Shown here: piece after piece, positions 10,540 to 36,881 of the stretch
Numbering within the stretch: position 1 is the stretch's first letter
How the letters are laid out: each line of letters opens with the position of its first letter
Origin: a virus
Virus record (IMG/VR): IMGVR_UViG_3300027752_000024
Span: 1 to 54,150 of that record
Direction: 5' to 3' (one strand)
Length of the DNA: 54,150 bases
The notes under the pieces: model-generated
Database searches by the model: none
The model's input: the letters and a program-made list of their open reading frames with translations, nothing else
What the model was told of the DNA's origin: nothing
Translations under genes and position numbers: made by a program

Positions 10540-10893
10540 TCATTGTGGTATTAAACTGTCTATGTCAAAGTTTACACTAACTCCGCAACCGCAACTGCTT
10601 TTAGCATTTGGATTGTTAATTTCAAAGTTACTGCCAGTTAAACTACTTACATAGTCAACTTCTGTTCCTATTAGAAACATTACACTGTCTGCACTAATAA
10701 CAAAGCTACCTTGATCGCAAGTAACTACTTCGTCACCTGGCTTTAGATCTTCTACTTGTGCTGTTCCCCAGTCGTATTCAAATCCTGCGCAACCGCCGCC
10801 TTTGAGATTTAAACTGATTGCATAACAATCATTCTCTTTGCATAGTTTGCCGATCTGAACATTTGCTGCTGGAGTTATGGTACATATTGTCAT
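10540..10893 (-). CDS. HesB/IscA-like A-type Fe-S cluster carrier
   Basis: 117 residues, the usual length of the family. The A-type carrier signature is present: C35 in GGGCAGFEY and the C-terminal pair C101 and C103 in SSCGCGVSVNF, which in IscA/ErpA/HesB ligate iron or a 2Fe-2S cluster for transfer to apo-proteins. Such genes are known in marine T4-like phages, often beside tail genes as here. The window encodes at least seven radical SAM enzymes that need 4Fe-4S clusters, so supplying clusters to them is an attractive but unproven role. A T4-type late promoter sits 20 nt upstream. Confidence 0.9.
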   Translation of the reverse strand: MTICTITPAANVQIGKLCKENDCYAISLNLKGGGCAGFEYDWGTAQVEDLKPGDEVVTCDQGSFVISADSVMFLIGTEVDYVSSLTGSNFEINNPNAKSSCGCGVSVNFDIDSLIPQ

Positions 10894-14903: not shown

Positions 14904-14908
14904 GTGGT

Positions 14909-15695: not shown

Positions 15696-15699
15696 ACAG

Positions 15700-15707: not shown

Positions 15708-15728
15708 CAGATACAACTTGCATAAATT

Positions 15729-17057: not shown

Positions 17058-17061
17058 TGTC

Positions 17062-18852: not shown

Positions 18853-18881
18853 TGTCTGCCCTTGTTATAATGTATGTTCTT

Positions 18882-18910
18882 ATTATATAGCCTTTTAATG
18901 AAAAAGTCAA
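18882..18910 (-). promoter_or_regulatory. Strong sigma70-like promoter for the topoisomerase operon
   Basis: Minus strand TTGACT, 17-nt spacer, exact TATAAT. It overlaps the stop region of the upstream 43-residue gene and lies about 30 nt before the topoisomerase ATG. Confidence 0.8.
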
Positions 18911-20505: not shown

Positions 20506-20666
20506 AACTGCTCCGGTTCCATTCCTAGTGATTCATGAAAGTCAAATACTTTGTACCCTTTTAACATATACATTGTAGCACACTTAGGCGTACAGAGCAA
20601 GATCTTATTGTACGTTTGCTCGCCTTGTACCCATTTTTCTATACTATATAATCTGTGTTCTACCAT
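20469..20666 (-). CDS. Small hypothetical protein overlapping DNA ligase start
   Basis: 65 residues, beginning MVEHRLYSIEKWVQGEQTYN. Its ATG overlaps the stop of the SGNH-like gene (ATGGTAG) with GAAGG a few nt upstream, and its end overlaps the ligase start by 37 nt. Contains CTPKCAT, then FDFHESLGMEPEQLCEHSHK with several Cys/His residues that might bind metal. No family recognised. Overlaps at both ends make it a good candidate for translational coupling, though a spurious frame cannot be excluded. Confidence 0.55.
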   Translation of the reverse strand: MVEHRLYSIEKWVQGEQTYNKILLCTPKCATMYMLKGYKVFDFHESLGMEPEQLCEHSHKILSNV

Positions 20667-21424
20667 TTGCCTTCAAAACTTTCCTTGGATAACTTAACTC
20701 GATCAAACTTGTCATCAAGCAAGTATACTGTACTTGTTTGTTGTTTGTTGTACAATAGTTGTAACTTTAAAAATATTTGGTTATGTTGACTTGTACTTAA
20801 ATGGCCGCTCCGCACATCGTTTTCTAATGTAATACTACTTTCCGGATCATTGAAACTAAAATAAGACAGCGTAGGATACATTGTTGTTCCACTTTTAAAA
20901 ATATGTCCAATGTATTGATCTTCCTTACTGCTAAGATTTGCATATTTGTTGTTGTATAGCCCTGGAAAACAATAAAAGTGCCAAAACAGTCTGTCTGGGA
21001 AGTTGTCTGCAAGATACTCATCAAACCATTGTAATACTCCGGTTAACTGTATATTAGAAAGGTCTTCTCTATAAAAATGAGAATAATATTCTTTGGCTGC
21101 GTGTCTAACTTTTTCAACTAACGGATATGTTGTAAACTTTCTAAACGCTCGACCATCGTTGATTATAGTTGTGTTAATAACAGGAACTTTGTGATGATAT
21201 ATTCTACTAGCTTCGCTCCAACATGTTATCATCATGTCAAACTTGCCACCATTGTTTAAATATTCAAAAAACTGTTCAACAACATATATAGGCCCTGCGC
21301 CGTCTTTTGCTAACATAACTACTTCTAAGTTAAACTTATCTGCAAGTTGTCCTATCCATGTTGTTTTATGAGTGTGGGCATAACTGTCCCCTAACACTAG
21401 TAATATTTTTTTATCTAGTCCCAT
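20660..21424 (-). CDS. SGNH/GDSL-like hydrolase-fold protein
   Basis: 254 residues. The N-terminal ILLVLGDSYAHTHKTTWIGQ resembles block I of SGNH hydrolases, with GDSY placing a nucleophilic Ser at residue 14, and DVRSGHLSTSQHNQIF near 220-235 resembles the C-terminal block with catalytic Asp and His. The middle has MITCWSEASRIYHH, which may correspond to another core strand. Family members de-acylate glycans or lipids; in phages similar proteins are often called hypothetical. Substrate unknown. It overlaps both neighbours by a few nt. Confidence 0.65.
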   Translation of the reverse strand: MGLDKKILLVLGDSYAHTHKTTWIGQLADKFNLEVVMLAKDGAGPIYVVEQFFEYLNNGGKFDMMITCWSEASRIYHHKVPVINTTIINDGRAFRKFTTYPLVEKVRHAAKEYYSHFYREDLSNIQLTGVLQWFDEYLADNFPDRLFWHFYCFPGLYNNKYANLSSKEDQYIGHIFKSGTTMYPTLSYFSFNDPESSITLENDVRSGHLSTSQHNQIFLKLQLLYNKQQTSTVYLLDDKFDRVKLSKESFEGKW

Positions 21425-23417: not shown

Positions 23418-23444
23418 GATGCACCTCTATATGTGTTATAACTC

Positions 23445-23472
23445 AGTATAACATACTAGCTGTTGTTGTCAA
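23445..23472 (-). promoter_or_regulatory. Sigma70-like early promoter with extended -10
   Basis: Minus strand TTGACA, a spacer of about 16-17 nt ending in TGT, then TATACT, giving a TGnTATACT extended -10. Separates the radical SAM block from the phosphoesterase/ligase/topoisomerase transcripts. Confidence 0.75.
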
Positions 23473-23473
23473 C

Positions 23474-24811
23474 CTAGAAGTAGTCTTTGATCCACGGTAT
23501 ATAATCGTGAATATCAATCTTTCTAAACTTGTCACTGGCATTAGTATTGTCTATAAAGTGTTGCCAGTGTGTTTCGTTTTGTGGTTGATTGAGAACATTT
23601 TTTAAGTTAATAATATTATCAACTGCCCATTGTTCCCAGTCTCGTAAATCTGCATTTTTAAACTTCAAGTGTTGTTCTTCAAGCATTGTATTCATTAATG
23701 CTTTACGGTCGTCTGGTAGATTACATATGTGCAAGTGTTGTGGATGATCTACAATATTAAAATGTGGCAAACAATTCTGATATCCGTGTACACCCCAATC
23801 CCATTCGTAGTTCCAACTAGTATACTGGTCTTGACACCATTGTAAAATATTAGGTAAATCGTGTAGATTCATCAAACTAAGTGTAACATGCGTGTGTACT
23901 TTAACACCAGTACGAGTTTTACTAAACTCAGCGAGCTTAAACATATTTTTTTCAATAACACGCCATTTGGTAGGAAATCTAACATAATGTGCAAGGTCGC
24001 CAATTGCGTCAATACTTAAACTAAGTACAACACCTTTAAACTTATCCCAAATCTTTAACAGCCTGTCTGGTATAGTAGTAGCATTTGTGTTGTAGTGCAG
24101 TTCTATATGTTTGCTCCAACCCTGATCAATGATGTGTTCTAACCAAGCGTAGTGTTCTTCAACAACCAGCGGCTCTCCACCAATAAAGTTAATAACTCTT
24201 ACATTTGGCAATACTTCATCAAAGAACCCTTCTTCAAATGCTTTAATAAACCAAGGCTTATCACTGCTCATTTTAGCAATCATATATGCTGTTTCGTCCC
24301 AATCAGTATGAGGTACTGTTGGGCCTTCTTCAATCCATCTATGACTTGCCCATGGGTTACAACTGCGGCATTTTAAGTTACAAATATTTCCTAAGCTGAT
24401 ATCTAAATATGTAACAGCTTGTGGATCTAAGCGTCCGTCATCATCAACATGCTTTAAAGTTGTATCAGTGTGATCTTCGTATATCTCATTCCATGTTTGT
24501 CTGAAACTACGGATGCCTTGATCCTCTAATTCAAAACAACCTTTACAACCTTTGGGTATTTCATTGTTGAGTAGTTTTTTACGTATTTCCATAGCTGTTG
24601 GATCATTTATAAAATCACCAATGTCAGGACTATTCCAGTTGTTGTGTTCTTTCCAATAAGGAACAGAATCTACATCAACTCCTGGCATGTAACTGTTAGT
24701 TTCAATACGACTAAAACAACAAGGACGAGTGCGTCCATGTGAATGTGTGCTGTAACCTTGCATACTAAGGTAACAAAAGTTTTTTGGCAGGTTATCTGAT
24801 TTTGTTTGCAT
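23474..24811 (-). CDS. Radical SAM protein, twitch/SPASM-type
   Basis: 445 residues from the ATG at 24811; the frame extends upstream into the neighbouring gene. The 4Fe-4S motif is C144-x3-C148-x2-C151 (NICNLKCRSC), followed by a VINFIGGEPLV segment for SAM binding. Ahead of it an N-terminal domain has CYLSMQGYS, RPCCFSR and GCKGC, likely ligands of an auxiliary cluster, as in the neighbouring paralogues. Such enzymes modify peptides (epimerisation, thioether or C-C bonds) or act as maturases; substrate unknown. Last gene of the long radical SAM transcript. Confidence 0.85.
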   Translation of the reverse strand: MQTKSDNLPKNFCYLSMQGYSTHSHGRTRPCCFSRIETNSYMPGVDVDSVPYWKEHNNWNSPDIGDFINDPTAMEIRKKLLNNEIPKGCKGCFELEDQGIRSFRQTWNEIYEDHTDTTLKHVDDDGRLDPQAVTYLDISLGNICNLKCRSCNPWASHRWIEEGPTVPHTDWDETAYMIAKMSSDKPWFIKAFEEGFFDEVLPNVRVINFIGGEPLVVEEHYAWLEHIIDQGWSKHIELHYNTNATTIPDRLLKIWDKFKGVVLSLSIDAIGDLAHYVRFPTKWRVIEKNMFKLAEFSKTRTGVKVHTHVTLSLMNLHDLPNILQWCQDQYTSWNYEWDWGVHGYQNCLPHFNIVDHPQHLHICNLPDDRKALMNTMLEEQHLKFKNADLRDWEQWAVDNIINLKNVLNQPQNETHWQHFIDNTNASDKFRKIDIHDYIPWIKDYF

Positions 24812-25784
24812 ATTCTGGCCTTGCTTTGCTGATATTAAAGTCTGCTGCACAATGACAATGTGTCTTAGGACACCAAACACCTTCGCTCATTGTAGTATTA
24901 AACTCGCCTTGTACAATATTGCCCAACAGTGGGCCAACGCCACAACTGGCTTGTTGAATACGTCCATTAGGATGAATGTGTAAACTTTCGTGTATATTGC
25001 ACAACCAGCCCTTAAAGAAGTTCTTACCGTTTGTAATGATACCGTTTGTATCAATAGCTTCTATGGTGTCATCTTCATACTGTACTTTTGCCCAAGCATA
25101 ACTTGGATCTTTTTTAATAGGAATACTCTGTTGCTGCACTGTACTATTTGTTTTAAAGAAATCCATTTTCCATTGTTCTTCATAATGATACGGATCTGTG
25201 CTAGGACGTAGCTCGTCATAAACCGGTGCATACTCAATCATATAGTTGTCGCACTCATTTTTTATTCTGTCGCCAAATGCCATGCACTGTTCAAAATGAT
25301 CGTGATGCATCATAATACGACTACACAAATAGTTTTTCTTATCTTGCAAGAACTTGTAAACATCCATGTACTTGTCGTCTTTGCTCCATTCTGCGTGATA
25401 GCTGGCAACAACATCTTCAAACAAGTGATGATGATCCTTCCACCAGCTTAGTGGCTTACTAAAGTTGGTGTTGATACCTACACAACTGCCAGGCCATTCT
25501 GCATGTTCTCTAAACTTTTCTACAACAGGAATAAGTCCTTTCCAAAATGTAGGTTCGCCGCCGCTGAGGTACAGTTTAAAATATTTGTAGCCTTTGGCCT
25601 TGTAATGAAGCATGATACGTTCTAATGTGTTAACAATAGTATCTATGTCAGTGTCGTTTTTGTTACGGCCTGCCCAGTTCCATTCACTACAATATGTACA
25701 GCGAAAGTTACACCAATCATTTACTTGCCACACAATACTGACCCATTTGTCCTTTGCTGGCAGGATTGCTTTTATATCTTGCAT
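24792..25784 (-). CDS. Radical SAM protein with short N-terminus
   Basis: 330 residues. The cluster motif C25-x3-C29-x2-C32 (WCNFRCTYCSEW) and the LSGGEPTF motif (73-80) mark a radical SAM core starting at the N-terminus, unlike its neighbours which have an extra N-terminal cysteine domain. The C-terminal part has CNIHESLHIHPNGRIQQASC and CPKTHCHCAADF, a SPASM/twitch-like arrangement for an auxiliary Fe-S cluster. Overlaps both flanking radical SAM genes. Substrate unknown; the layout suggests a distinct subfamily within the cluster. Confidence 0.85.
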   Translation of the reverse strand: MQDIKAILPAKDKWVSIVWQVNDWCNFRCTYCSEWNWAGRNKNDTDIDTIVNTLERIMLHYKAKGYKYFKLYLSGGEPTFWKGLIPVVEKFREHAEWPGSCVGINTNFSKPLSWWKDHHHLFEDVVASYHAEWSKDDKYMDVYKFLQDKKNYLCSRIMMHHDHFEQCMAFGDRIKNECDNYMIEYAPVYDELRPSTDPYHYEEQWKMDFFKTNSTVQQQSIPIKKDPSYAWAKVQYEDDTIEAIDTNGIITNGKNFFKGWLCNIHESLHIHPNGRIQQASCGVGPLLGNIVQGEFNTTMSEGVWCPKTHCHCAADFNISKARPEYANKIR

Positions 25785-26980
25785 TCGTTTTCCAATATGT
25801 AATCTAATGTTGGGAATATATCACCAAACTTGTATTTGCGATATCTATCGTTAATACTAATAAACTGCTTCATCCGTGTTATGTTCTCTTCAGAATATTT
25901 ATTAGTATTCTGTGTGTAGTTAATGATTCGCGAAACTGCATCGTTGTGTAGTTTGCTGTTTATTATTTTTAAGTTGTCTATTACTTTGTGTCGTATTTCT
26001 TTGGGCCATACACAACTATGAATTTGGTCAGGGTGTTCTAAGAATATAGGTACAAAGTCTATACGCCGTGTTTGTGTGTCTTCTAGCCAACGTATCAGTG
26101 GAGCAACATCAAATACATTCCATGCCTGGTATACAAAGTAAATCTTTAGTTGTACTTTTTCAGGTAGACGCTGTGCTTTTGCAAAGTTTTCTTCTACTTT
26201 TTTCCAATCAGTTGGATAACGTATGTATTGGTTGTGTTCGCCAAATCCGTCAATGCTCATCTGTATTTCACTTGCATCAAAGAAGTCTAGTTTATCGTAA
26301 AACCCTTCTGGCCATGTTGTCATATTAGTGGTCCATGCAACATAGCATTTGTTGTTGCCAGCGGAAACAAGGGCGTCAAGCACGTACTGATTGGCTTGTA
26401 TTAAGGTTGGTTCACCCCCAGTTAGGTAAAGACGCTCTAACGTAGGTGCTACGCAGTCTACGAAGTCTTTAAACTCTTGAGTCTCGTACCATGCCCAATC
26501 GTGTTCCTCTACACTTTTAATCTCGTGTTGCCACTGATCATTTAGCCATTTAGGAACAGTTTCATTTGCAAGGATTTTCTTACGTTCTTTGTAGATATTA
26601 TCACTGCTCACACTCCAGCAACTATTGCATTTTAAGTTACAATGATTGCCCAATCGTAGTTCTAAGTGTGTAGGGTTGCCGTGAGTTACAGATGCATGAT
26701 AGGTTTTGTTGGCCCACTGCCTGCTGCTTTCTAAACCTTTTTCTTCGTGTTCGTAGCAGCGATTACATTCTTTAACTTTGCCACCACCCAGCATCTTTGC
26801 ACGAACATCCAGCATGTATTGCCCGTTCCAAATGTTCCACCAGTCAGTTTTACCTAGTACAGCATCTTTGCCATCTACTTGAATATAGTCTTCACTGTAT
26901 ACATGACAGCATAGTTTACATCTACCATCGGTGTTGGTGTGTACGTTTATAAACGGGTATACGCAATACGAATCACTCAT
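25772..26980 (-). CDS. Radical SAM protein, twitch/SPASM-type
   Basis: 402 residues from the ATG at 26980, chosen because GGAG lies 6 nt upstream and the ATG overlaps the preceding stop as ATGAGTGA. Core motif C114-x3-C118-x2-C121 (NHCNLKCNSCWS) and YLTGGEPTL. The N-terminus carries CVYPFINVHTNTDGRCKLCC and ECNRCYEHEEKGLESSR, matching the auxiliary-cluster domain of the genes at 23474, 29132 and 30333. Function unknown; tandem paralogy suggests successive modifications of one target or specialised paralogues. Confidence 0.85.
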   Translation of the reverse strand: MSDSYCVYPFINVHTNTDGRCKLCCHVYSEDYIQVDGKDAVLGKTDWWNIWNGQYMLDVRAKMLGGGKVKECNRCYEHEEKGLESSRQWANKTYHASVTHGNPTHLELRLGNHCNLKCNSCWSVSSDNIYKERKKILANETVPKWLNDQWQHEIKSVEEHDWAWYETQEFKDFVDCVAPTLERLYLTGGEPTLIQANQYVLDALVSAGNNKCYVAWTTNMTTWPEGFYDKLDFFDASEIQMSIDGFGEHNQYIRYPTDWKKVEENFAKAQRLPEKVQLKIYFVYQAWNVFDVAPLIRWLEDTQTRRIDFVPIFLEHPDQIHSCVWPKEIRHKVIDNLKIINSKLHNDAVSRIINYTQNTNKYSEENITRMKQFISINDRYRKYKFGDIFPTLDYILENECKI

Positions 26981-29132
26981 TCCATTCTCCATTTCCTTGC
27001 CATGCATATTTAAAGCTAAAGTCTGTATTACGTGTATACAAAAACTCTTGTTCGTGTTCGCGGAACACATCTGGATCGTGAGCATTTGTAGGATCTCTAG
27101 ATGCTTTTTCAGTGCCTTTCCACGCTAACTTACGAGCTCTAATAGCTGCATTACTGTTGTCTCTTGTAAAGTCCATGATACTCCAAACTGGGCTATTACC
27201 GTCTGGACTTACATGTGTAACTCCGTTGTGTTCCCAGTATGTATCATTCCAATCGTTGTATGGATCTTGTTGATAATCCCATTTAAAATCCGCAGTCCAC
27301 ACACCATCATCTGTTATTTCAAATATATAGTCTGCATCCAACGGTGCAGCATTGCGGCCACCCCATTCTTGATATTCCCATTCTTTACGGAACTTTAAAT
27401 GCAACTTATACCCGCCTTTGGTGCGCCATAAAATACGCAAGAATGGCCAAATCTCATTTACTAAACTGTCAGCAAAGTTACTAATGTACGGCTTGATAAT
27501 ATTATAGTTAAAATCATCATAGTCGTACTCAATGTCTAGTTCTTTGTCTGGATTATCAAATGTAACCTCGTAATGAAACTTTGCTAAGTTTGGTCTAGTA
27601 GGTTTAGAACATGCTTTTTCTGTATTCAGCAAATCTGTAAAAATACTAAAGGACTTCATACGAATAAGTTTGTGTACAATACTCATTTTAAAGTCTTTTG
27701 TAATCCAGTGATCGTAATAGTAAAATGGACTTAGGTTAAATTTGTCTAAGTTTTGTCCTACAATAGTATCAACACCAACACTAAATCCTGTACCCTGACT
27801 AATAGCAATAAGTCCTTGATTGCGCACACGATACATAAATGTAAGAGTGTCTTCTAGTTCTTTAGGACCTTCATTGGGATAGCCAACAATCCAGTTGGTC
27901 ATTGCATCAATACCAGCAGCATAGCCATCACGGAAGTTTGCTTCCATTTCTGCCACAGTAACTTTTTTGTCCATTGCATCTAATACAACTTGACTTCCGC
28001 TTTCAATACCGTAGTTGAGTACTTCACAGCCTCCTGCTTTTAAATCCTTGTAATACTCTGCATCCATTCTGCCATCACAACGGCAGTAGCCAGTCCAATG
28101 TATATCCAGTTCTTTTTCTGCAACACCTTTTACAAACCCACGTAGCTCGTTGAGATTGCCATTGACTAAACTGTCAATAAACCAAAACACATTAGTACCA
28201 TGTTCGTAATACATGTGTTCAATCTCATCAAGTGTACTAAGTGCATTACGTTGTCTGTATTTCCAAAAGTGTGTTTCTTCGCAGAACGTACACTTTGCAA
28301 TACAGCCTCTTGATATCTCACACAATGCACCGTTTGGAAACTTGTACTTACTAAAGTCAAAATCACTGTAATCAGGCAACGGTAGTGTACTCAAGTTATA
28401 ACGCTGATTTTCAGGTTGTCTAATAATCTTACTTACAGCATTTTCTGTGTACTCGATGGATTTGTTATTTTCAATGTTTTCTAGTGCAAGCAACAACGGC
28501 TGTTCGCCTTCGCCGTTTACTACATAATCAAATAGGTCGCAGCCTTTGTAAAAACTAGCATGAGTACTCGGTCCTCCAACAATAATAGTCACAGTTGGCA
28601 AACGTTTTTTTAACTCTGCTGCCATATACTTTGTTGGTACTTCGTTGCAGTAGTACAATGTAAATCCAATCACATCAGGATTAAATGCAACAATCTCATC
28701 TAGCTTTTCATCCAGTAATGGTCTTAGATGAGGATGGATATCATCATAGTAGTTGTCTTCTAACCAATGCCAGTCACGTAGACTATCCCATGGATTAAAC
28801 TCTATAGGCCACTGCTCATCGTTGAATCGGCTGTATGCATCCACATTAATGTCAAAACTCTTACATGCATATCCTGCACGTTTTACAGCACTAGCAAGTT
28901 TTGCTGTGTTGTAAGGTGGAAAGTTAGGATCCCACTCTGGTAGTAATCCTAAACATACACGAGTCTTACGATTAACACTGTATTCAATCTCAAGATTGTC
29001 TAGTCCTTTTTGTACTGGTTTGCTATACTTTGCAATAACAGCTAATGTAGCTGTGTGCTTGTCTTCAGCAAGTGTGCCTGTAGGACGTTCCGGTGCTTGT
29101 CTATCTGGATCTGTATTTTCATAAAATCCCAT
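26973..29132 (-). CDS. B12-binding-domain radical SAM protein
   Basis: 719 residues. Residues about 55-225 form a Rossmann-like cobalamin-binding-type domain (PPYNTAKLASAVKRAGY, VIGFTLYYCNEVPT, IIVGGPSTHASF, VVNGEGE). The radical SAM cluster motif is C277-x3-C281-x2-C284 (RGCIAKCTFCEE), followed by VFWFIDSLVNGN and YGIESGSQVVLDAM, typical of this class. The C-terminal 200 residues are unusual, aromatic and acidic, with no recognised fold. Known relatives methylate unactivated carbons or catalyse ring rearrangements. It ends in an overlap with the next radical SAM gene and starts directly on another's stop. Confidence 0.88.
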   Translation of the reverse strand: MGFYENTDPDRQAPERPTGTLAEDKHTATLAVIAKYSKPVQKGLDNLEIEYSVNRKTRVCLGLLPEWDPNFPPYNTAKLASAVKRAGYACKSFDINVDAYSRFNDEQWPIEFNPWDSLRDWHWLEDNYYDDIHPHLRPLLDEKLDEIVAFNPDVIGFTLYYCNEVPTKYMAAELKKRLPTVTIIVGGPSTHASFYKGCDLFDYVVNGEGEQPLLLALENIENNKSIEYTENAVSKIIRQPENQRYNLSTLPLPDYSDFDFSKYKFPNGALCEISRGCIAKCTFCEETHFWKYRQRNALSTLDEIEHMYYEHGTNVFWFIDSLVNGNLNELRGFVKGVAEKELDIHWTGYCRCDGRMDAEYYKDLKAGGCEVLNYGIESGSQVVLDAMDKKVTVAEMEANFRDGYAAGIDAMTNWIVGYPNEGPKELEDTLTFMYRVRNQGLIAISQGTGFSVGVDTIVGQNLDKFNLSPFYYYDHWITKDFKMSIVHKLIRMKSFSIFTDLLNTEKACSKPTRPNLAKFHYEVTFDNPDKELDIEYDYDDFNYNIIKPYISNFADSLVNEIWPFLRILWRTKGGYKLHLKFRKEWEYQEWGGRNAAPLDADYIFEITDDGVWTADFKWDYQQDPYNDWNDTYWEHNGVTHVSPDGNSPVWSIMDFTRDNSNAAIRARKLAWKGTEKASRDPTNAHDPDVFREHEQEFLYTRNTDFSFKYAWQGNGEWNE

Positions 29133-30340
29133 TACCAGATTCCGTCTAGTTCAGGAAACACATCCAGTAAACTTTCTTGCCGCAATCTATCGATACGCTG
29201 TGTTTTAAACTTAAACATTTTTATTTCATCTGTGCGATCTTTTTCCATAAAGTTTAAAATACTCTCGTAATCGCTAATAACTGATTTAATATTGTCAAAC
29301 TGTTTTAAGTAAGAAATGTGTTCTGCATATCTTTTTGCTACTTGAGATTTAATCCACGGCGGCAATATACTCAATCTCATGTAAGAAGGATCCAATAAAA
29401 TGTTGATGCGAATGTTCTGCGGTTCTAGTAATCCTTCTTCTATCCATTCTTTGTGGAAATCAGGTAGGTTAAGCACGTTGTACACGCTTACAGTAGGCGT
29501 TAGCTCAAAATATACGTGTGGACACTGCTCAATCATATCTCTACGGTTTTGCACCACCTGTGACCATACCATGTTCTTACGCAAGTATTCACCGCGAGCA
29601 TGATTTGCATCCAAGCTACCGGCCACTCTTACGTGTTCAAACTTGTTCCAGTATTCAAATGCTGTTTTGTTTTTGTAATACATTTGTGTAAAGTTAGTGG
29701 TGTAATCCATTTTAACATCGTGCTTGCCCATGGCAATCCACTTGTCAAGTATACGATAGTGCTCTTGTGTAATCAACGGTTCGCCACCTGCCCAGTATAC
29801 TCTTTCAACACTGTCCAGCAATGGCTCAAGTTCGTCCATAAAGTTTAACATATCGTCACGCACTTTTAGTATCTTGCCATGCGGCAGTTCACCGTATATT
29901 GCTTTATGATCTTCAAACCAGCTACTACTAAACTGTGGCCCGCAACTACGACACTTTAAGTTACAAAGGTTACTAAAGCGTATGTCCATGTATGCCATGT
30001 TTACATCACCAGCACTGCCGTCGTCGCTTGTGCTTTCAACTTTGTCCCAATGATGCATATAGTTTTCTATACTGCTGTTACGCAGTGTACTCATACCGTT
30101 GTCTTCTAGTTCATAGCAACGTCTACATTCTTTGCTGGGCGTGTCTTCCAACATGTTAAGACGCAACTGCCGCATTTCTGGGCCGTTCCAAATGTCTTGC
30201 AATGTTTGATCTTGTGTATTTCCTACAGGATGATCTGGATCACTCATGCAGCAAGGATATGTAGTTCCAGCAGGCCACAAATGCATGTGCGTCCACGGCA
30301 TCATGCAAAAATGCTTGCTTTGTTTTAAATCGTTAGACAT
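29132..30340 (-). CDS. Radical SAM protein, twitch/SPASM-type
   Basis: 402 residues. N-terminal domain FCMMPWTHMHLWPAG, then YPCCMSD and ECRRCYELEDNG; radical SAM motif C126-x3-C130-x2-C133 (NLCNLKCRSCGP) and VYWAGGEPLI. Closely similar to the next gene upstream, including the DDGS linker before the core and a C-terminal VFPELDGIW ending that recalls VFPELKDLYV in the paralogue, so the pair arose by duplication. Substrate unknown. Confidence 0.87.
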   Translation of the reverse strand: MSNDLKQSKHFCMMPWTHMHLWPAGTTYPCCMSDPDHPVGNTQDQTLQDIWNGPEMRQLRLNMLEDTPSKECRRCYELEDNGMSTLRNSSIENYMHHWDKVESTSDDGSAGDVNMAYMDIRFSNLCNLKCRSCGPQFSSSWFEDHKAIYGELPHGKILKVRDDMLNFMDELEPLLDSVERVYWAGGEPLITQEHYRILDKWIAMGKHDVKMDYTTNFTQMYYKNKTAFEYWNKFEHVRVAGSLDANHARGEYLRKNMVWSQVVQNRRDMIEQCPHVYFELTPTVSVYNVLNLPDFHKEWIEEGLLEPQNIRINILLDPSYMRLSILPPWIKSQVAKRYAEHISYLKQFDNIKSVISDYESILNFMEKDRTDEIKMFKFKTQRIDRLRQESLLDVFPELDGIW

Positions 30341-31544
30341 ATAAATCCTTTAGCTCTGGAAACACGTTGAGAAAGTTTTCTCCACGTTTCAGATCCATTT
30401 TCTGCATCTCCATCCTAAAAGCTGGAATCAAGTTGCTGTCATCACTATTGTACATGAAGTTTATAATATTGTCAATACCTTCATGTAGAAACTGTTTGCG
30501 CTGTGGATACATGTCTATTGCATCAATGTCCTGTTTTAACAACACCAAATTTTCTTTTGCAATGTCTTTTAAGTGTGCAGGTAATATTGTTATACTCAGC
30601 CAGTCTGGCCCGACTAATAGGTTGCTGAGATTGATATCGTAGTCGGTGGGTATGTTGTGTTCAAACAAGAAGTTAATAATCTTACGCAAGTCTAATATGT
30701 TTAATACACTGATAGTAGGATTAGGTTGTATGATTACACCTTTGTCATAACTGTGTTCAAAGTTATCACGTATCCAGCACAAGTTATCAAATACTGTACT
30801 CCACTTTTGTCCATTGCGTGTGTACTCGGCTTTGGCACCAATTTGGTCACAGCTTACACAGAAGAATATCTTATCAAAATGCTGCCAATACTTTTGTATG
30901 TGCTTGCCTTTTAAACTTAATCTACTGGCGTTACTGTTGTATGTTAATCTCGGTTTGAGTCCACGCTCTATAAGCATATCTAGCAGTCTGTAATGCTGCT
31001 CCATAAACAGGCTTTCGCCGCCAGTAAAATAAACTTCTTCAATAGTGGGCAACATTTCTTCAATCTCAGCCCACATTGCTGGATGATTGATTTCAACAAC
31101 TTCAGGCTTGCCAACAGTGTCTTCTGCCCACTTGCTGCTGAAATGAGGCCCACAACTACGACACTTCATGTTGCATAGATTACTAAACCTTACATCAAAG
31201 TATGCAAGATTCATTTGTTCTACACTACCATCATCGGCTGTTGTTTCTACTATGTCGTAATGATGGTCGTATTCGGTGTTGAACTTGTGTCTGTAACTGA
31301 TAATACCCTGGTCGTCATAGTTGGTACACTTTTTACATCCTTCGCTTGGTTCGTTGTTTAACATACGCATACGCAAGTCACGCATCTTTTCACTGTTCCA
31401 AGCACCTTTGAACCCAGCTTCGTTGATGTTACCAGTGGGCATATCCCAGTGATATATACAACAAGGATACGCATCGCCGTTTTGCCATACGCTCATGTGT
31501 GTCCATGGAGCCATACAAAAATGTTTTTTAAATTCTCTACTCAA
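30333..31544 (-). CDS. Radical SAM protein, twitch/SPASM-type, variant GGES motif
   Basis: 403 residues. N-terminal FCMAPWTHMSVWQNG, YPCCIYH and GCKKCTNYDDQG; core C124-x3-C128-x2-C131 (NLCNMKCRSCGP). The SAM-contacting GGEP motif reads TGGES here, a departure from all other copies in the window, with unknown effect. It otherwise aligns end to end with the 29132-30340 protein. Its start overlaps the glycosyltransferase-like gene by 8 nt. Confidence 0.86.
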   Translation of the reverse strand: MSREFKKHFCMAPWTHMSVWQNGDAYPCCIYHWDMPTGNINEAGFKGAWNSEKMRDLRMRMLNNEPSEGCKKCTNYDDQGIISYRHKFNTEYDHHYDIVETTADDGSVEQMNLAYFDVRFSNLCNMKCRSCGPHFSSKWAEDTVGKPEVVEINHPAMWAEIEEMLPTIEEVYFTGGESLFMEQHYRLLDMLIERGLKPRLTYNSNASRLSLKGKHIQKYWQHFDKIFFCVSCDQIGAKAEYTRNGQKWSTVFDNLCWIRDNFEHSYDKGVIIQPNPTISVLNILDLRKIINFLFEHNIPTDYDINLSNLLVGPDWLSITILPAHLKDIAKENLVLLKQDIDAIDMYPQRKQFLHEGIDNIINFMYNSDDSNLIPAFRMEMQKMDLKRGENFLNVFPELKDLYV

Positions 31545-32721
31545 TGTTGACTACTGCTTCTATAAGATTGTCTGTTATGTCATTCCAACTAATCTTACGT
31601 GAAAGGAACAACTGTTGGTTATGTAATAATTTATCATAATATTTTCGTCTGACGGTCCGTTTTAATACATCAATGTCATAGTTTTTAATATGTTTCCACA
31701 TTGCTTGTGCTTCAACAAAATTTGTAACTTTGTTAACACCGAACAAGTCTTCAAACGTATGATACCCACGTTCTCGTAATAGTTCGTGCTGCTGCGGATT
31801 ACCTATAATAAAGAATGGATGTAGATTCATAATAGCTTTATAAGTTTTTTCTGTTATAAAGTTTTTATGAGTGTCGCTTTCTGTAACTACACTTAATATA
31901 CTATCTTCGTAATATGGTTTAATGCTGTCGCCATAGTTGATAACAAACTGCGTGTGCAATGTATCTAACTTTCTTGGACGCATTTCTCTAAGAAGTGCTA
32001 ACTTATAATCTTTATGCAACTCTTCAGGAATACGATCTATTACAGAATGTCTACGAGCAACATCTTCAAACTCACGGCGACCCACAGCAGGCAAGTTAAA
32101 GCTAACATGTCCTTCGTCTAATACATCACTTCTTAACAAACTATACATCAACCATATACGATGTGGTTTGATATTTCTATTCAAACACAGAAACTTTTTA
32201 GTTGCTGCTCTAACAGTAGGTTTACTAGTAAATGAGATATCAGGAAGTACTTGGTGGTGTAGTCTAGTAATACTTTCCCAAAAGTTAACACTAACATACT
32301 TTACACCATGTATTATCCTATTGTGAGCATCTCTGTCGCTGCACATTACAACAACTTTGTGTAATGGTATGTTTTTACTTCTAAGCTCTTGTTCTAGTTT
32401 GTCCGGTGACATTCTACATTCCAGCACACTTGACAAACATAGATATACACTAGGATCGTTGTTTAATAAATCAATACTGGCTTGTGAAATATGTATGTCT
32501 GTGTTTCCAGGCATGTGAATATGATCAAAAATAAACTTAGGGACGTTTGCTGGCAATAGACTTAGTTGGTTTATATGGAAGAAGTTTCGGAATGAGAAGT
32601 CGTCCCAGTGTCCAAGAAGGTAACTTAGCTGGATAGATCCGTTGTTATGTCCAAAAGTCAGTGTAACATCACCGTGTGGTGATGGAAACACATTATCTAA
32701 TAAAAAATAGCATTTATACAT
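31537..32721 (-). CDS. Glycosyltransferase-like protein
   Basis: 394 residues. The C-terminal half has SVVTESDTHKNFITEKTYKA and HPFFIIGNPQQHELLRERGY, a pattern seen in GT-B-like phage glycosyltransferases and resembling the nucleotide-sugar site of fucosyltransferase-type enzymes (TEK, then PF and G). The middle has KFLCLNRNIKPHRIWLMYSL. The N-terminal third is less conserved. As first gene ahead of two radical SAM paralogues it may glycosylate the same product or target. Assignment is by motif only. Confidence 0.6.
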   Translation of the reverse strand: MYKCYFLLDNVFPSPHGDVTLTFGHNNGSIQLSYLLGHWDDFSFRNFFHINQLSLLPANVPKFIFDHIHMPGNTDIHISQASIDLLNNDPSVYLCLSSVLECRMSPDKLEQELRSKNIPLHKVVVMCSDRDAHNRIIHGVKYVSVNFWESITRLHHQVLPDISFTSKPTVRAATKKFLCLNRNIKPHRIWLMYSLLRSDVLDEGHVSFNLPAVGRREFEDVARRHSVIDRIPEELHKDYKLALLREMRPRKLDTLHTQFVINYGDSIKPYYEDSILSVVTESDTHKNFITEKTYKAIMNLHPFFIIGNPQQHELLRERGYHTFEDLFGVNKVTNFVEAQAMWKHIKNYDIDVLKRTVRRKYYDKLLHNQQLFLSRKISWNDITDNLIEAVVNIE

Positions 32722-32742
32722 TCTTATATAATACTACAGATT

Positions 32743-33330
32743 TTATTTTTTAGCAAGAAGTTTTTCGCGGTGTGGATCTAAATACTTTTTAACTAGATCA
32801 AAGAATGTTACATTCTCGCCTGGAATATCAACTACAGTATCAGCAGGAACGCCTGCTGCTTTGCCAAATGCTTCTGGATTGTCATCTAACACTGCTTGAC
32901 GGAGATCAGTAGCACTTGCAAGTCTTGGGGGCTTTACCCATTCTATGTCTTTGAAGTTGTAACTACCGTGCGGGCCTTCTGCACCATTATACTGTTGTAT
33001 AGTTTTAGGAACCCATGCTTCGTCTGTGTAAAGTTTTAATGTAGCATCAGGATGCTTTGCATATAGCTCACTAGCAAGTGTTAGCCAACTTTGGCTGAAT
33101 ACAATATGTCCTTTTACTTCAGGCCAAATAGTTTCCATTGCAACAACTTTTGCTTGCGCTGGCAATGGATCTTTAGGACCAACTGTGCTTTGATTAGTAC
33201 CTACATACCAGTGTGTTTCTCGGCTAGCCATTTCCCACGCATTTTTGTGACCTTTGTGTGGAGGATTAAATCTTCCAAATATAAGTCCTACACTTTCGCC
33301 TGGTGCTTCAAATAGTTGTCTTAGTCTCAT
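32743..33330 (-). CDS. Nucleotidylyltransferase (HIGH superfamily), NMNAT/cytidylyltransferase-like
   Basis: 195 residues from the ATG at 33330, which overlaps the preceding stop as ATGA. Motifs: IFGRFNPPHKGHKNAW (17-32) with the HxGH nucleotide-binding signature and SATDLRQAV near 140, the variant of the ISSTxxR motif. Members attach nucleotides to NMN, phosphopantetheine, glycerol-3-phosphate and similar phosphates. Common in marine T4-like phages beside the two genes upstream; the substrate is unknown. Confidence 0.85.
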   Translation of the reverse strand: MRLRQLFEAPGESVGLIFGRFNPPHKGHKNAWEMASRETHWYVGTNQSTVGPKDPLPAQAKVVAMETIWPEVKGHIVFSQSWLTLASELYAKHPDATLKLYTDEAWVPKTIQQYNGAEGPHGSYNFKDIEWVKPPRLASATDLRQAVLDDNPEAFGKAAGVPADTVVDIPGENVTFFDLVKKYLDPHREKLLAKK

Positions 33331-34454
33331 GCCGGTGTCCACCTTTTTCTTGGAACAAGTTTTACGTTGCCAAACTTTTTATTAGGGTCTGCATAACGTA
33401 CCCGGCCTTCACCGTTGGTATCCCAAATGTCACCTTGTTCACCTTCTACTTGATCAATAACTTCGTCTTTCATACGCTGAATCATTTTAACTAGTTCAAA
33501 TATTGCACTTGTTGCACCTTTGTACTGTAAATCTATCTCTGCAATCTTTGCTTGTTTTCCTACACTAACTTTACTATTTTGTAGCCAAGCAGAAAAGTCT
33601 TTTGCACTCAAACTATCCAAACGTTTTGCTTTTGCAGTTTGGTTAACATATGTGTAAATAATATTCTTTAAATCAGCAAGTCCAGGAACGCCTGCTAAAA
33701 ATCCATCAATGGCTGCTTTATTCTGTGATACAAAGTTTTCCACAGCATCAATCGCCCCTGTATTAACAGCGACCGGTTTACTGTTATAAACTGGACCTAA
33801 TACAACAATACTAGGATCATTATCAAACATACTAAAGTCTTGCATAGGCTGTTGACTACTATCTGGCATACCGAACTGTGGGAAGAAAGCGTGTCCGACT
33901 ATCATAATAGTAGCACGGTCTATACGCTTGCCTAGATCACTGTTTGCTTTAACATGGTAGCATGTTTGTGAGTTAGGATTTGGACAGAATGTATATACTC
34001 CATCTTTTTGTTCAGGCGGATCTAAAAATAATCCATCTGCATAAACAAACCCTACAAAGTCTCTCGGAGTTGCTCTATCAAAATAATCATACATACTTGC
34101 AAACTTTTGCGCAAACTGGTCTCTTGCTGTTTTTTCTTCTGGTGTCTTAGGATTGCCACTTTTGTTAGAAATAAAGTCCGCCACTTCTTCTTGACTGGTA
34201 GCCGCTACACCCTTACTCCATGCGTTGTGTCCTGCAAGTATAAGCGGTCCACCTTTGCGCTCACGGCCCCAATATATTTGAGGATTGCCATCCCACTTCA
34301 TACGTATACTTTGGCTTCCGCTATCTGTAGCAATGTCTTTGAGATGTTCTAATGCTTCAATAGTACCGTCACTACCGTAAAAAAATACCAAGTCTTCTAA
34401 ATGGTTAAATGCGCGGCCAAGTTGTTTGGTTTCGAGTAGTTCTTGGTATCTCAT
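33327..34454 (-). CDS. DUF6267-like protein with ligase-type KxDG motif
   Basis: 375 residues. Near the N-terminus, AFNHLEDLVFFYGSDG is followed by RMKWDGNPQIYWGRE, where K53-W-D55-G56 resembles motif I of covalent nucleotidyltransferases (KxDG), and FVGFVYADGLFLD further on could be a DGE-like strand. I recognise it as DUF6267-type protein of marine phages. A ligase or capping-like nucleotidyl transfer is a hypothesis from that motif. It is flanked by a polymerase-beta-like nucleotidyltransferase and a HIGH-family nucleotidylyltransferase, coupled by ATGA overlaps on both sides. Confidence 0.75.
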   Translation of the reverse strand: MRYQELLETKQLGRAFNHLEDLVFFYGSDGTIEALEHLKDIATDSGSQSIRMKWDGNPQIYWGRERKGGPLILAGHNAWSKGVAATSQEEVADFISNKSGNPKTPEEKTARDQFAQKFASMYDYFDRATPRDFVGFVYADGLFLDPPEQKDGVYTFCPNPNSQTCYHVKANSDLGKRIDRATIMIVGHAFFPQFGMPDSSQQPMQDFSMFDNDPSIVVLGPVYNSKPVAVNTGAIDAVENFVSQNKAAIDGFLAGVPGLADLKNIIYTYVNQTAKAKRLDSLSAKDFSAWLQNSKVSVGKQAKIAEIDLQYKGATSAIFELVKMIQRMKDEVIDQVEGEQGDIWDTNGEGRVRYADPNKKFGNVKLVPRKRWTPA

Positions 34455-35185
34455 CTAGTCATTGCCCTCATTAGTTCAACTAATCTATTGTGATTTTTAT
34501 CAGCTAGTGATTCGGCTACTTTGGTCCAGTTAGGATCTTGCTCTGCACGTTGGAGTGCTTGCTCAGGATTAGGAACTTTCTTTAATATAGTTTCTACACT
34601 TTCTAAGTCACTAGCACTGGCGCTGCTGCTGAGTATAAGTTGTGCAACTTTGTTAACATCGTTTGTAAGAAGTTGTGCTTTTTTACCATTTTCGTCCTTG
34701 GCAAATAATCCTTGGAACGCACTCCAAAACATATTCTTATCTTTGGCAAGCATATACAATAGTAACTGTTTGTGTTTGCCTTTGTAAGGACTACCTGTTG
34801 GAATGTTGTGTGTATGAAACTGTGCTACACTGCTTGCACCCGGCACAACCATAATATCAACTTGATGGCTGTTGTTGCCGGCTTTGGCTCTTACGTGTAC
34901 GTTAACACCTTTTTGTGCTGTTTCAAAGCCTTTTTGTGCAATGTAGTCATTGAGCATTCTACGTGCATCTTTTGGAGTACGCACATCAAAATAATCCATT
35001 ACTGCTGCTTCGTCAACAATAACATCTAAGTCGCCACTTGTTTTACCTGGAGTTGGAGTTGCTGCACTACCTACAGGAATAGCTTCAATGCCTGTTCCTT
35101 CTAGACTGCTGTTAACTGTTTTAAGAATCTCTTCGATTGCACTGTGATCAAAATCACTGGTGCCCTGAAACACATTACCACCCAT
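34451..35185 (-). CDS. Polymerase-beta-like nucleotidyltransferase
   Basis: 244 residues, beginning MGGNVFQGTSDFD. Catalytic pattern of the pol-beta superfamily: GS at 39-40, D52 and D54 in KTSGDLDVIVD, and D111 in HQVDIMVV. The C-terminal half is helical. Similar proteins occur in marine T4-like phages next to the DUF6267-type gene. Possible activities include adenylylation or nucleotide addition to RNA or protein. AAGGAG lies 10 nt upstream of the start. Confidence 0.8.
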   Translation of the reverse strand: MGGNVFQGTSDFDHSAIEEILKTVNSSLEGTGIEAIPVGSAATPTPGKTSGDLDVIVDEAAVMDYFDVRTPKDARRMLNDYIAQKGFETAQKGVNVHVRAKAGNNSHQVDIMVVPGASSVAQFHTHNIPTGSPYKGKHKQLLLYMLAKDKNMFWSAFQGLFAKDENGKKAQLLTNDVNKVAQLILSSSASASDLESVETILKKVPNPEQALQRAEQDPNWTKVAESLADKNHNRLVELMRAMTR

Positions 35186-35189
35186 AGTA

Positions 35190-35669
35190 TTAACTCCTTG
35201 ATAATGTATTTAGTATCTTTTGCTTAACATCATCGTAAGACTCGTCTTTGATACTTAGCTTAAACAGTATACGATCTTCTGTGCTGTTGTCAACCGAATG
35301 TTTGATACTGGTGTTTAATAATGCTGTGGTATAGTAGTATTCATTCTTGCCAAAGTTTACAGGTGCAGGGTTGCCACTTAACAAGAAGTTGATGCTGCAA
35401 GTTGTATCTTGATCTATGTGAGGAAGTAGAGTTGTATTAGCATGTAATATATAAAACTTTGATACTGCATTGATATTAAAATGTCTTGCTAACGTATCTG
35501 CATATGCTAACTCAATATCGGTTACTATACGCCAGTTGTTCATAGCATACTTGCCAAAGCGTTTGTCGGTGTACGGCATGGAATGTTGTTTGTGTTCGTT
35601 CCAATAGTCTAACAAACATTGTTTGTCAAAATCAAAATTAAAAACTAATATGTCATTGTTGTTTATCAC
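35190..35669 (-). CDS. 2OG-Fe(II) oxygenase-like protein
   Basis: 159 residues. A short double-stranded beta-helix type protein with H84-x-D86 (LLPHIDQD), distal H124 (SIKHSVDN) and R133 (EDRILFKLS), the facial-triad and 2-oxoglutarate-binding pattern of phage hydroxylases. Such enzymes hydroxylate amino acid residues or small molecules. It precedes the nucleotidyltransferase trio and follows the radical SAM gene at 35883 through a 76-residue gene, with a 4-nt overlap. Confidence 0.7.
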   Translation of the reverse strand: MINNNDILVFNFDFDKQCLLDYWNEHKQHSMPYTDKRFGKYAMNNWRIVTDIELAYADTLARHFNINAVSKFYILHANTTLLPHIDQDTTCSINFLLSGNPAPVNFGKNEYYYTTALLNTSIKHSVDNSTEDRILFKLSIKDESYDDVKQKILNTLSRS

Positions 35670-35896
35670 GACTTTTTGATTGTCCTATGCATACCTTCTG
35701 GCGAATGAATAGCATTGATAAGATCGTTAAACATATCTGTTGATATTTCAAGTATACTGTGTATTTCAAGTTCGTTGTCGTACTGACGTATATAAACAAC
35801 ATCATCAAACGCATCAATAATTAAATCGTCGTATAGACCAGTTTCGTCCATTACAGTAATAGTTGTTAAGTCGTGATCAAACTCATTTGTAAACAT
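35666..35896 (-). CDS. Small acidic hypothetical protein
   Basis: 76 residues, beginning MFTNEFDHDLTTITVMDETG. Very acidic first half (DETGLYDDLIIDAFDDVVYI), then a helix DMFNDLINAIHSPEG. It overlaps the radical SAM gene by 14 nt upstream and the oxygenase by 4 nt downstream. Small acidic partners beside radical SAM genes can be precursor peptides or recognition proteins, but there is no clear leader/core organisation here. Function unknown. Confidence 0.65.
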   Translation of the reverse strand: MFTNEFDHDLTTITVMDETGLYDDLIIDAFDDVVYIRQYDNELEIHSILEISTDMFNDLINAIHSPEGMHRTIKKS

Positions 35897-36881
35897 TTGT
35901 ATCGTTATCCTTATATTTTGTAATCATTACTTCATCTATAGTATGGCATTCTTGTTGGTTGCATACCGTAAACTCATCTTTAAAAAGTTTCAAGTTAGGA
36001 TTAAAAATATTTCCTATACTTCCTGTATTGTTACATATGCCATACTGGACATTTCCATTAGCTTGTATTACTATCTTTTTATTTGTAACAGAACATTTCC
36101 ATCCTTTAAATCTATTTTGATTATTTCTAACAATAGTCGAAGCGTTTGACTCAATGCCGTCTACAGTTACATTTAAATATTCAGGAGTACTATGATTGTT
36201 GTCTTTGACTTGTTTAAGTTCTGTAGTTGAAAAGTATCCTAAACTACCATCATCAATAGTTTGCAAATAATGTTCTAAATTTCTACTAGATGCAAAAGTA
36301 GGATTTACTGTATTGGTAGAAGCATCATATAATGGAAAAACAGGAAGTCTAACTACAGGTATACTGTACTCTTTTAACGCAATCTCTAACGCATCAACGC
36401 GATCAAACAGTTTGTTTACCAACATTGCACGTATTTCTACACTGCCGCCGTGTTCTACAATAGTTGATGCTAATTCTACAACATGGGCAATATCAGCACT
36501 TTCTGGATGAAAACTAATCTCCATGTTAATATTCTTAAAACTATTTTTGCATTTCATGTACTGGCTAATAGGCAAACTGCCGTTAGTAAAAACTCCTACT
36601 TTAAAGTCGTTATCGGACATAAAGTTGAACCATTGATGCACTTTGGGAATTAAAAACGGTTCGCCACCTGTAACATACACAAGTACTGTTTTATCTGCAG
36701 GTATGTTATTTCGTATATTTGATGCAGCAGCGATTAAGTCATCTACAATAACAATATTTTTCTTAATAATAGAACGATGATTGCTAGGACTACAATAACT
36801 ACAATCATAGTTACACATATCTAAAGGGCGCCAATGAACAATATAATCTGCATACCAATCGATCTTTTTTATAATATTCAT
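35883..36881 (-). CDS. Radical SAM protein downstream of the tRNA array
   Basis: 332 residues from the ATG at 36881; a TTG 15 nt upstream is less likely. Core motif C23-x3-C27-x2-C30 (DMCNYDCSYCSPS) and YVTGGEPFLI. The C-terminus has GWKCSVTNKKIVIQANGN, YGICNNTGSIGN and VCNQQECHT, a SPASM/twitch-type auxiliary cluster region resembling the 24792-25784 protein. It is the first protein gene after the tRNA array, and no promoter is evident between them, so read-through from the tRNA transcript is likely. Substrate unknown. Confidence 0.85.
   Translation of the reverse strand: MNIIKKIDWYADYIVHWRPLDMCNYDCSYCSPSNHRSIIKKNIVIVDDLIAAASNIRNNIPADKTVLVYVTGGEPFLIPKVHQWFNFMSDNDFKVGVFTNGSLPISQYMKCKNSFKNINMEISFHPESADIAHVVELASTIVEHGGSVEIRAMLVNKLFDRVDALEIALKEYSIPVVRLPVFPLYDASTNTVNPTFASSRNLEHYLQTIDDGSLGYFSTTELKQVKDNNHSTPEYLNVTVDGIESNASTIVRNNQNRFKGWKCSVTNKKIVIQANGNVQYGICNNTGSIGNIFNPNLKLFKDEFTVCNQQECHTIDEVMITKYKDNDTNVYK

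What the first reader, a model, noticed from the sequence alone, without database searches (positions are those of the whole stretch)
23474..36881. Seven radical SAM enzymes, one with a B12 domain, in a 13-kb phage block
Six proteins have CxxxCxxC cores plus extra cysteines typical of twitch/SPASM auxiliary clusters (24811, 25784, 26980, 30340, 31544 and 36881 starts), and one (26973-29132) has a cobalamin-type Rossmann domain. Four carry an extra N-terminal Cys domain (PCC, CxxC). Five of the six genes between 23474 and 31544 are paralogue-like and overlap, so the set was amplified and kept. One or two twitch-type radical SAM genes in marine phages are familiar, but this density looks exceptional. 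Together with glycosyltransferase-like, nucleotidyltransferase and oxygenase-like genes it could be a multi-step system that modifies a phage or host peptide, glycan or nucleotide. No precursor peptide is obvious; the 76-residue acidic protein at 35666 is the nearest candidate.
Basis: partly seen in the sequence, partly recalled or inferred. Interest (0 to 1): 0.85.

Follow-up and report, generated by a model that had tools for sequence, protein, structure and literature searches.

The report
Phage operon of six radical-SAM enzymes
A T4-like aquatic phage carries a tightly packed set of six free-radical (radical-SAM) enzymes joined to a sugar-transferring enzyme, one version of a gene cluster common in aquatic phages that most likely builds or decorates an unusual sugar coat, probably on the infected cell's surface.

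Summary
Confirmed: the window holds seven intact radical-SAM (rSAM) genes, one with a B12-binding domain. Six form one overlapping operon with a glycosyltransferase (GT): GT-R6-R5-R4-R3-R2-R1, 23474-32721, minus strand. R7 lies about 3 kb away behind conserved phage genes and is not part of the set.

R1, R3, R5 and R6 belong to NCBIfam N_Twi_rSAM, in which the twitch Fe-S domain is N-terminal (permuted relative to BtrN). R4 is a B12-rSAM protein with a TsrM/OxsB/TokK-like fold that meets no curated NCBIfam cut-off. R2 has a C-terminal twitch.

The gene order recurs in 17 other viral contigs. The paralogues are ancient orthologous lineages under purifying selection. All 80 retrieved R5-type loci are arrays of 3-10 N_Twi genes, so the density is a trait of a widespread virus gene-cluster family; a phage genome with 12 rSAM genes was already published.

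Context points to glycans: a GT-R6 fusion, GT-B fold matches, sugar-nucleotide, carbamoyl, aminotransferase and SGNH genes nearby, a cultured Vibrio phage with GT8/GT4, PagP and LpxC beside its N_Twi genes, and a bacterial N_Twi gene in a glycan locus. No precursor peptide fits in the operon.

Best reading: a glycan-tailoring operon, probably for the host surface. The chemistry is inferred.

The parts
31537..32721 (-). GT: glycosyltransferase-like protein (394 aa), first gene of the operon; GT-B-like fold, fused to R6 in relatives L033/L034
   Evidence: no Pfam/PHROG/NCBIfam match; fused to N_Twi in a 792-aa protein; predicted structure of the fusion matches GT-B enzymes OtsA, FUT9, LmbT by Foldseek (modest scores); conserved E-x9-EK
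30333..31544 (-). R6: N_Twi radical SAM enzyme (403 aa)
   Evidence: NF033640 362.8 bits; SPASM PF13186 on residues 10-74; own orthologous clade
29132..30340 (-). R5: N_Twi radical SAM enzyme (402 aa)
   Evidence: NF033640 404 bits; clade; at least 587 related stretches in IMG/VR
26973..29132 (-). R4: B12-binding domain + radical SAM + about 280-residue C-terminal region (719 aa)
   Evidence: PF02310 36.8 bits, PF04055 51.4 bits; AF2 pLDDT 89.4; Foldseek TsrM, OxsB, MgmA, TokK, AprD4, CysS; 53 viral loci
25772..26980 (-). R3: N_Twi radical SAM enzyme (402 aa from ATG at 26980), with one extra Cys in the core that is invariant in its group
   Evidence: NF033640 295 bits; Cys conservation
24792..25784 (-). 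R2: radical SAM enzyme with C-terminal twitch-type cysteines (330 aa)
   Evidence: PF04055 28.9 bits; invariant C25/C29/C32 and C262/C281/C305/C310
23474..24811 (-). R1: N_Twi radical SAM enzyme (445 aa from ATG at 24811), last rSAM gene of the operon
   Evidence: NF033640 325 bits; clade
20660..21424 (-). SGNH-like protein (GDS motif); relatives carry one to three SGNH-like genes directly after R1, which the window lacks at that place
   Evidence: weak PF16822 ALGX match, E 0.005; G-[DC]-S and block-V His in alignment A11
35883..36881 (-). R7: separate radical SAM gene next to the tRNA cluster; not part of the conserved operon
   Evidence: PF04055 36.1 bits; not found in the syntenic position of relatives; 22% identical to R2
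10540..10893 (-). Fe-S A-type carrier-like protein, candidate supplier of clusters to the rSAM enzymes
   Evidence: homologous genes at 65-68% in relatives, where PF01521 is found at the same places

Best explanation
A phage-encoded glycan-tailoring operon. SHOWN: six intact rSAM genes packed as one operon with a GT; conserved order; separate ancient paralogue lineages; purifying selection; fusion of the GT with R6 in one relative; and a strong tendency of this gene family to sit among glycosyltransferase, sugar-nucleotide, carbamoyl, aminotransferase, methyltransferase, sulfation and SGNH genes in other phages and in one bacterial locus. INFERRED: the GT (GT-B type) attaches a sugar to a glycan carrier. 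The N_Twi enzymes use a 5'-deoxyadenosyl radical to abstract hydrogen at chosen sugar carbons, and the auxiliary cluster in the permuted twitch domain (four conserved Cys, so probably fully ligated) handles the substrate electron, giving dehydrogenation, dehydration or epimerisation, one position per paralogue (R3, with an extra invariant core Cys, is a candidate epimerase). R4 adds a methyl group at an unactivated carbon with cobalamin, R2 acts with it, and SGNH-like genes add or remove acyl groups. The product most likely changes the infected cell's surface glycan (O-antigen, LPS or capsule), hindering adsorption of competing phages; decoration of the phage's own tail fibres is the main alternative target.
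For: Operon with 1-20 bp overlaps; same order in 17 related contigs; orthologous paralogue clades; dN/dS 0.03-0.10 for the six rSAM genes, 0.16-0.23 for the GT. GT-R6 fusion; GT-B Foldseek matches for the fusion model; the three GT-family hits in 346 kb of related phage contigs all abut N_Twi genes; 63 of 80 N_Twi loci hold this GT family and 48 SGNH-like genes. Cluster neighbours include Epimerase, RmlC, DegT, carbamoyltransferase, UDPG dehydrogenase, TylF, FkbM, APS kinase, Stf0, while the listed families of 40 genes from elsewhere in such phages show none of these. Cultured Vibrio phage K566: four N_Twi with two GT8 and a GT4-like gene, then PagP and LpxC. Bacterial N_Twi on a Methylomagnum plasmid among GT2/GT4/GT39, prenyl synthetase and ABC transporter genes. 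The twitch domain matches BtrN, which acts on a sugar-like cyclitol (own knowledge). rSAM cassettes vary inside the host-recognition region of pelagimyophages alongside GTs (PMC7029224). The operon lies upstream of the tail-fibre block here and in two long relatives.
Against: No substrate is shown. Foldseek hits for the N_Twi half include peptide enzymes (SkfB, EpeE, SuiB) as well as BlsE and DesII, and R4's best NCBIfam score is a RiPP C-methyltransferase model far below cut-off (97 vs 281.85). The GT half of the model is of low to moderate confidence and its TM-scores are low. In the window itself the only glycan gene in the operon is the GT, with an SGNH-like gene at a distance; the sugar-nucleotide genes come from distant relatives. 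Gene neighbourhoods in phages are mosaic. The host is unknown, so surface versus virion target is undecided.
Confidence: 0.6

Rival explanations
1. Protein or peptide modification: the rSAM set crosslinks, epimerises or methylates a phage or host (poly)peptide (RiPP-like, or a tail-fibre protein), with the GT glycosylating the same protein.
For: Twitch/SPASM rSAM enzymes are best known as peptide maturases (own knowledge); R4's best NCBIfam scores are TIGR03975 and ApyD RiPP models; Foldseek lists SkfB, EpeE, SuiB; tail fibres lie about 13 kb away.
Against: No curated RiPP cut-off reached; operon genes overlap, leaving no room for a precursor; no conserved short ORF in cluster gaps, and the 76-aa family was found only in close kin; recognised neighbours are sugar genes rather than peptidases or leader-binding domains.
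Confidence: 0.18
2. DNA or nucleotide hypermodification: the rSAM enzymes make unusual bases to evade restriction.
For: A QueD-like gene (14313-14798) and a Dam-like methylase (49099-50061) are in the window; GTP cyclohydrolase I occurs in a related contig; weak QueE-like scores for R2/R7.
Against: No PF00303 thymidylate synthase/hydroxymethylase in 12 of 14 related contigs, including the three over 110 kb that carry the operon-type clusters; QueD lies outside the operon; the operon type recurs with sugar genes instead.
Confidence: 0.07
3. Small-molecule or lipid product: the cluster makes a secreted or membrane-active natural product during infection.
For: The wider gene set (rSAM, B12-rSAM, GT, carbamoyltransferase, aminotransferase, TylF) resembles aminoglycoside- or nucleoside-type clusters; profile hits to BlsE and tetraether synthase.
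Against: No scaffold-forming enzyme in the conserved core; the K566 and Methylomagnum contexts look like envelope-glycan loci.
Confidence: 0.1
4. Unrelated scattered phage genes that happen to be neighbours.
For: rSAM genes are frequent in marine phages (PMC5332604).
Against: Fixed order in 17 contigs, orthologous paralogue clades, every one of 80 loci with at least 3 N_Twi genes.
Confidence: 0.02

Closest known systems
NCBIfam N_Twi_rSAM (NF033640), twitch domain-containing radical SAM protein
   Same: R1, R3, R5, R6 all score far above its cut-off
   Different: the family is named by architecture only; no function found in the held papers; here four diverged paralogues sit in one operon with a B12-rSAM protein and a GT
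BtrN (2-deoxy-scyllo-inosamine dehydrogenase), twitch rSAM enzyme
   Same: its C-terminal twitch (residues 188-258) aligns with the N-terminal domain (10-77) of the N_Twi profile; acts on a sugar-like substrate (own knowledge)
   Different: domain order is permuted; overall similarity is weak
Class B cobalamin-dependent rSAM enzymes (TsrM, OxsB, TokK, CysS, MgmA)
   Same: R4's predicted fold (B12 Rossmann + rSAM barrel) matches these best
   Different: 13-18% identity, additional C-terminal region, no curated NCBIfam cut-off met, close relatives found only in viral contigs in the collections searched
T4-like marine genome TARA_ERS488813_N000010 with 12 rSAM genes and an A-type carrier (PMC5332604)
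   Same: T4-like phage type, many rSAM genes, Fe-S carrier gene; ClpP also noted in such genomes
   Different: that paper lists the genes as Fe-S metabolism and proposes no operon, family or substrate; not tested whether its genes are homologous to these
Pelagimyophage host-recognition cluster with GTs and rSAM cassettes (PMC7029224)
   Same: rSAM cassettes vary together with GTs near tail fibres
   Different: only mentioned in passing there; no gene-by-gene comparison was made here
Phage O-antigen conversion (gtr-type glucosylation and O-acetylation)
   Same: works-like: phage enzymes change host surface sugars and block other phages (own knowledge)
   Different: those systems use flippase/GT/acetylase, no radical enzymes; homology not tested

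Membership tests
N_Twi_rSAM (NF033640) | score above the curated cut-off of 170 bits over the full model | tested here: met
   R1 325.1, R3 295, R5 404, R6 362.8
N_Twi_rSAM (NF033640) | N-terminal twitch cysteines plus CxxxCxxC | tested here: met
   invariant in alignment A3; 197/197 and 194/197 viral members
N_Twi_rSAM (NF033640) | R2, R4, R7 as members | tested here: not met
   R2 24.4 and R7 30.9 bits, R4 no hit
Class B cobalamin-dependent rSAM enzyme (for R4) | B12-binding domain plus rSAM domain in one chain | tested here: met
   PF02310 and PF04055 both above cut-off; fold match
Class B cobalamin-dependent rSAM enzyme (for R4) | actual cobalamin binding and methyl transfer | not testable with these tools
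   the fold neighbour AprD4 is a diol dehydratase, so methylation is not implied by fold
RiPP maturation systems | curated maturase model reached | tested here: not met
   best TIGR03975 97.1 vs cut-off 281.85; ApyD 95.4 vs 750
RiPP maturation systems | precursor peptide gene in the cluster | tested here: not met
   overlapping genes, no conserved short ORF; a precursor encoded far away is not excluded
Phage surface-glycan modification system | glycosyltransferase in the operon | tested here: inconclusive
   fold and context support; no Pfam family; activity unknown
Phage surface-glycan modification system | altered host glycan or blocked superinfection | not testable with these tools
   needs experiment
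Base-hypermodification pathway | thymidylate synthase-type hydroxymethylase | tested here: not met
   absent from 12 of 14 related contigs, which may be fragments

The most novel reading that the evidence does not exclude
A virus-specific, B12-dependent radical chemistry pathway: aquatic phages have evolved modular arrays of 3-10 permuted-twitch rSAM enzymes plus a B12-rSAM methylase that rewrite carbon centres of a finished or growing glycan, giving sugar structures not known from cells, as a widespread way to remodel host envelopes or virions.
Probability: 0.35. Interest if true: 0.82.

Novelty: new variant of a known kind. Interest (0 to 1): 0.62.

Why it matters
Radical SAM enzymes are demanding (oxygen-sensitive Fe-S clusters, reductant, SAM, and here B12), yet these phages keep six in one operon and relatives keep up to ten N_Twi genes within 17 kb. 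If the glycan reading holds, it explains a large, recurrent and so far functionless class of aquatic viral genes, adds radical carbon chemistry to the phage-host surface arms race, and offers new enzymes for editing sugars. A cultured Vibrio phage with a smaller version makes it testable.

Tried and rejected
Megablast of the block against 50,697 phage records: no match. tblastn of R4 in phages: only a 22%-coverage hit in Streptomyces phage SF3. PDB profile search with the GT: nothing. Scan with the mixed N_Twi alignment failed for lack of conserved stretches; R5 orthologues were used instead. CobS_N in related phages: none, so the phage does not visibly help make B12. The 75-residue ORF after R4 in L046-type loci (c58) is a TTG-started frame identical in near-identical contigs, rejected as a precursor. 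R7 rejected as part of the system. First attempt at dN/dS with a library routine failed, redone by Nei-Gojobori. Recent local amplification rejected by the tree.
Full report
WHAT IS THERE. The window is a complete 54,150-bp IMG/VR record, classed linear, so probably a fragment. It carries T4-type topoisomerase II subunits, tail fibres and a baseplate-connector gene and 11 tRNAs; all cultured topoisomerase relatives are under 60% identical (best listed 36-38%), so it is a T4-like phage without a close cultured relative. Seven rSAM frames are present and intact. Six of them and a glycosyltransferase-like gene form one overlapping run on the minus strand, 32721 to 23474: GT, R6, R5, R4, R3, R2, R1, each overlapping the next by 1-20 bp. 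R7 lies about 3 kb beyond the GT's start, behind five genes of a conserved phage block, and is not at that place in relatives.

KINDS OF ENZYME. R1, R3, R5, R6 are N_Twi_rSAM proteins. Their N-terminal C-x12-G-x4-C ... CxxC (R5 spacing) and the core CxxxCxxC are invariant over 19 diverse members. The profile's residues 10-77 match BtrN residues 188-258, its C-terminal twitch domain: the same auxiliary-cluster domain placed before, not after, the barrel. R2 has a C-terminal set of four cysteines. R4 has a B12-binding and an rSAM domain, is modelled with pLDDT 89 and resembles TsrM, OxsB, MgmA, TokK, AprD4 and CysS in fold at 12-18% identity. Purifying selection acts on all six (dN/dS 0.03-0.10), less on the GT (0.16-0.23) (synonymous sites are near saturation in several pairs).

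RELATIVES. With R4 as probe, 22 and then 53 viral loci were found. In 17 contigs (some near-identical; about a dozen distinct) the seven-gene order is complete. In 48 of the 53 loci R4 sits with N_Twi genes. More distant clusters (L026, L032, L035, L036, L057) have five or more N_Twi genes, R4, R2 and the GT. A tree of 83 N_Twi proteins puts R1, R3, R5 and R6 in separate clades, each holding one member per locus, with distant loci joining R1, R3 and R5 (quick method, some deep nodes weak, several long branches). The set is therefore old and co-inherited. With R5 orthologues as probe at least 587 viral stretches matched; of the best 80 loci (some overlap with the first set) every one has 3-10 N_Twi genes, 63 the GT family, 48 SGNH-like genes, 36 R2-like and 24 R4-like genes. 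R4 and R2 co-occur (22/2/14/42, Fisher p = 3e-8, not corrected for relatedness). Whole-contig rSAM counts reach 22 in a 518-kb and 18 in an 86-kb record.

WHY GLYCAN. (1) In L033/L034 the GT and R6 are one 792-aa protein. (2) Its model gives GT-B matches (trehalose-6-phosphate synthase, FUT9, LmbT) and rSAM matches (SkfB, BlsE, EpeE, viperin, DesII), although the GT half is of low to moderate confidence. (3) In three long related contigs (346 kb) all three GT-family genes abut N_Twi genes. (4) Non-rSAM neighbours match NAD-epimerase, RmlC, UDP-glucose dehydrogenase, DegT, carbamoyltransferase, TylF, NDP-sugar C-methyltransferase-type, FkbM, APS kinase and sulfotransferase families; a set of 40 genes from elsewhere in such phages shows replication, folding and metabolic genes instead among the listed families. 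These neighbour sets hold one protein per sequence cluster and come mostly from distant loci; only the 25 commonest families of each tally were shown. (5) Vibrio phage K566, cultured, has four N_Twi genes with two GT8 and a GT4-like gene, followed by PagP and LpxC, both lipid A enzymes. (6) The only plasmid hit of R6, in Methylomagnum, is in a polysaccharide-type locus. (7) The literature places rSAM cassettes among GTs in the pelagimyophage host-recognition region (PMC7029224).

MECHANISM. Shown: gene content, conservation, cysteine sets; predicted: the fold of R4. Inferred: hydrogen abstraction from sugar carbons by the N_Twi enzymes with the auxiliary cluster as electron acceptor or donor; R3's extra invariant core cysteine (residue 247 of the longer frame) as possible hydrogen donor of an epimerase; methylation by R4; acyl exchange by SGNH proteins; effect on the host surface. 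Fe-S supply may come from the phage's A-type carrier (10540-10893), present in 6 of 14 related contigs.

ALTERNATIVES. A peptide substrate is the main rival: fold neighbours include peptide enzymes, but no precursor fits in the operon and no RiPP model reaches cut-off. DNA modification is disfavoured by the lack of a thymidylate-synthase-type hydroxymethylase in the long relatives carrying this operon. Chance neighbourhood is excluded by conserved order.

NOVELTY. Many rSAM genes in one marine T4-like genome were already reported (12, with an A-type carrier; PMC5332604). My searches of the held library found no paper that describes the permuted-twitch arrays, their conserved order, the GT fusion or a function; the library lacks most subscription papers. 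I therefore call it a new variant of a known kind (phage glycan modification), with a sizeable chance of something new in its chemistry.

Noticed in passing
L062 (Vibrio phage K566, OZ196521.1) 13965-25244: A cultured phage carries four N_Twi rSAM genes with GT8/GT4 genes followed by PagP and an LpxC homologue, i.e. lipid A enzymes next to the radical enzymes.
   Followed up: partly
L033:6417-8792, L034:6417-8792: GT and N_Twi rSAM fused in a single 792-residue protein.
   Followed up: yes
L045:2601-9268: Four different SGNH-like (GDS) genes interspersed with N_Twi genes: SGNH proteins seem to be amplified together with the rSAM enzymes.
   Followed up: partly
L039 (518-kb contig) and L054 (214-kb contig): R4 homologues at 40-50% identity in huge-phage-sized contigs without adjacent N_Twi genes; the 518-kb contig has 22 rSAM matches in all.
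   Followed up: partly
window 39699-42199, + strand: Three-gene plus-strand island: amidinotransferase-like, 2OG-oxygenase and class I/II aminotransferase-like genes, with relatives (all or some of the three) in several of the same loci (L009, L019, L025); could be a small arginine-derived pathway.
   Followed up: no
window 14313-14798 and 46635-47276: QueD-like gene and a PP-loop (TilS-like) ATPase; no complete 7-deazaguanine pathway recognised.
   Followed up: partly
window 11237-11815, 13511-14434, 52687-53628: Sulfotransferase family 2, GT8-like (weak) and DUF6492 genes: further glycan-type genes outside the operon.
   Followed up: partly
L013:1412-2974: A 521-residue protein that looks like a sodium:solute symporter encoded on a phage contig, upstream of the same gene block.
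   Followed up: no
L027:1822-2595: An additional lone R2-type rSAM gene upstream of the block, near the variable spot where the window has R7: that spot may be an insertion site for rSAM genes.
   Followed up: no
window 25772-26980 (R3): An extra cysteine in the rSAM core, invariant in 12 R3 orthologues but not in the other paralogues; candidate hydrogen donor of an epimerase.
   Followed up: partly
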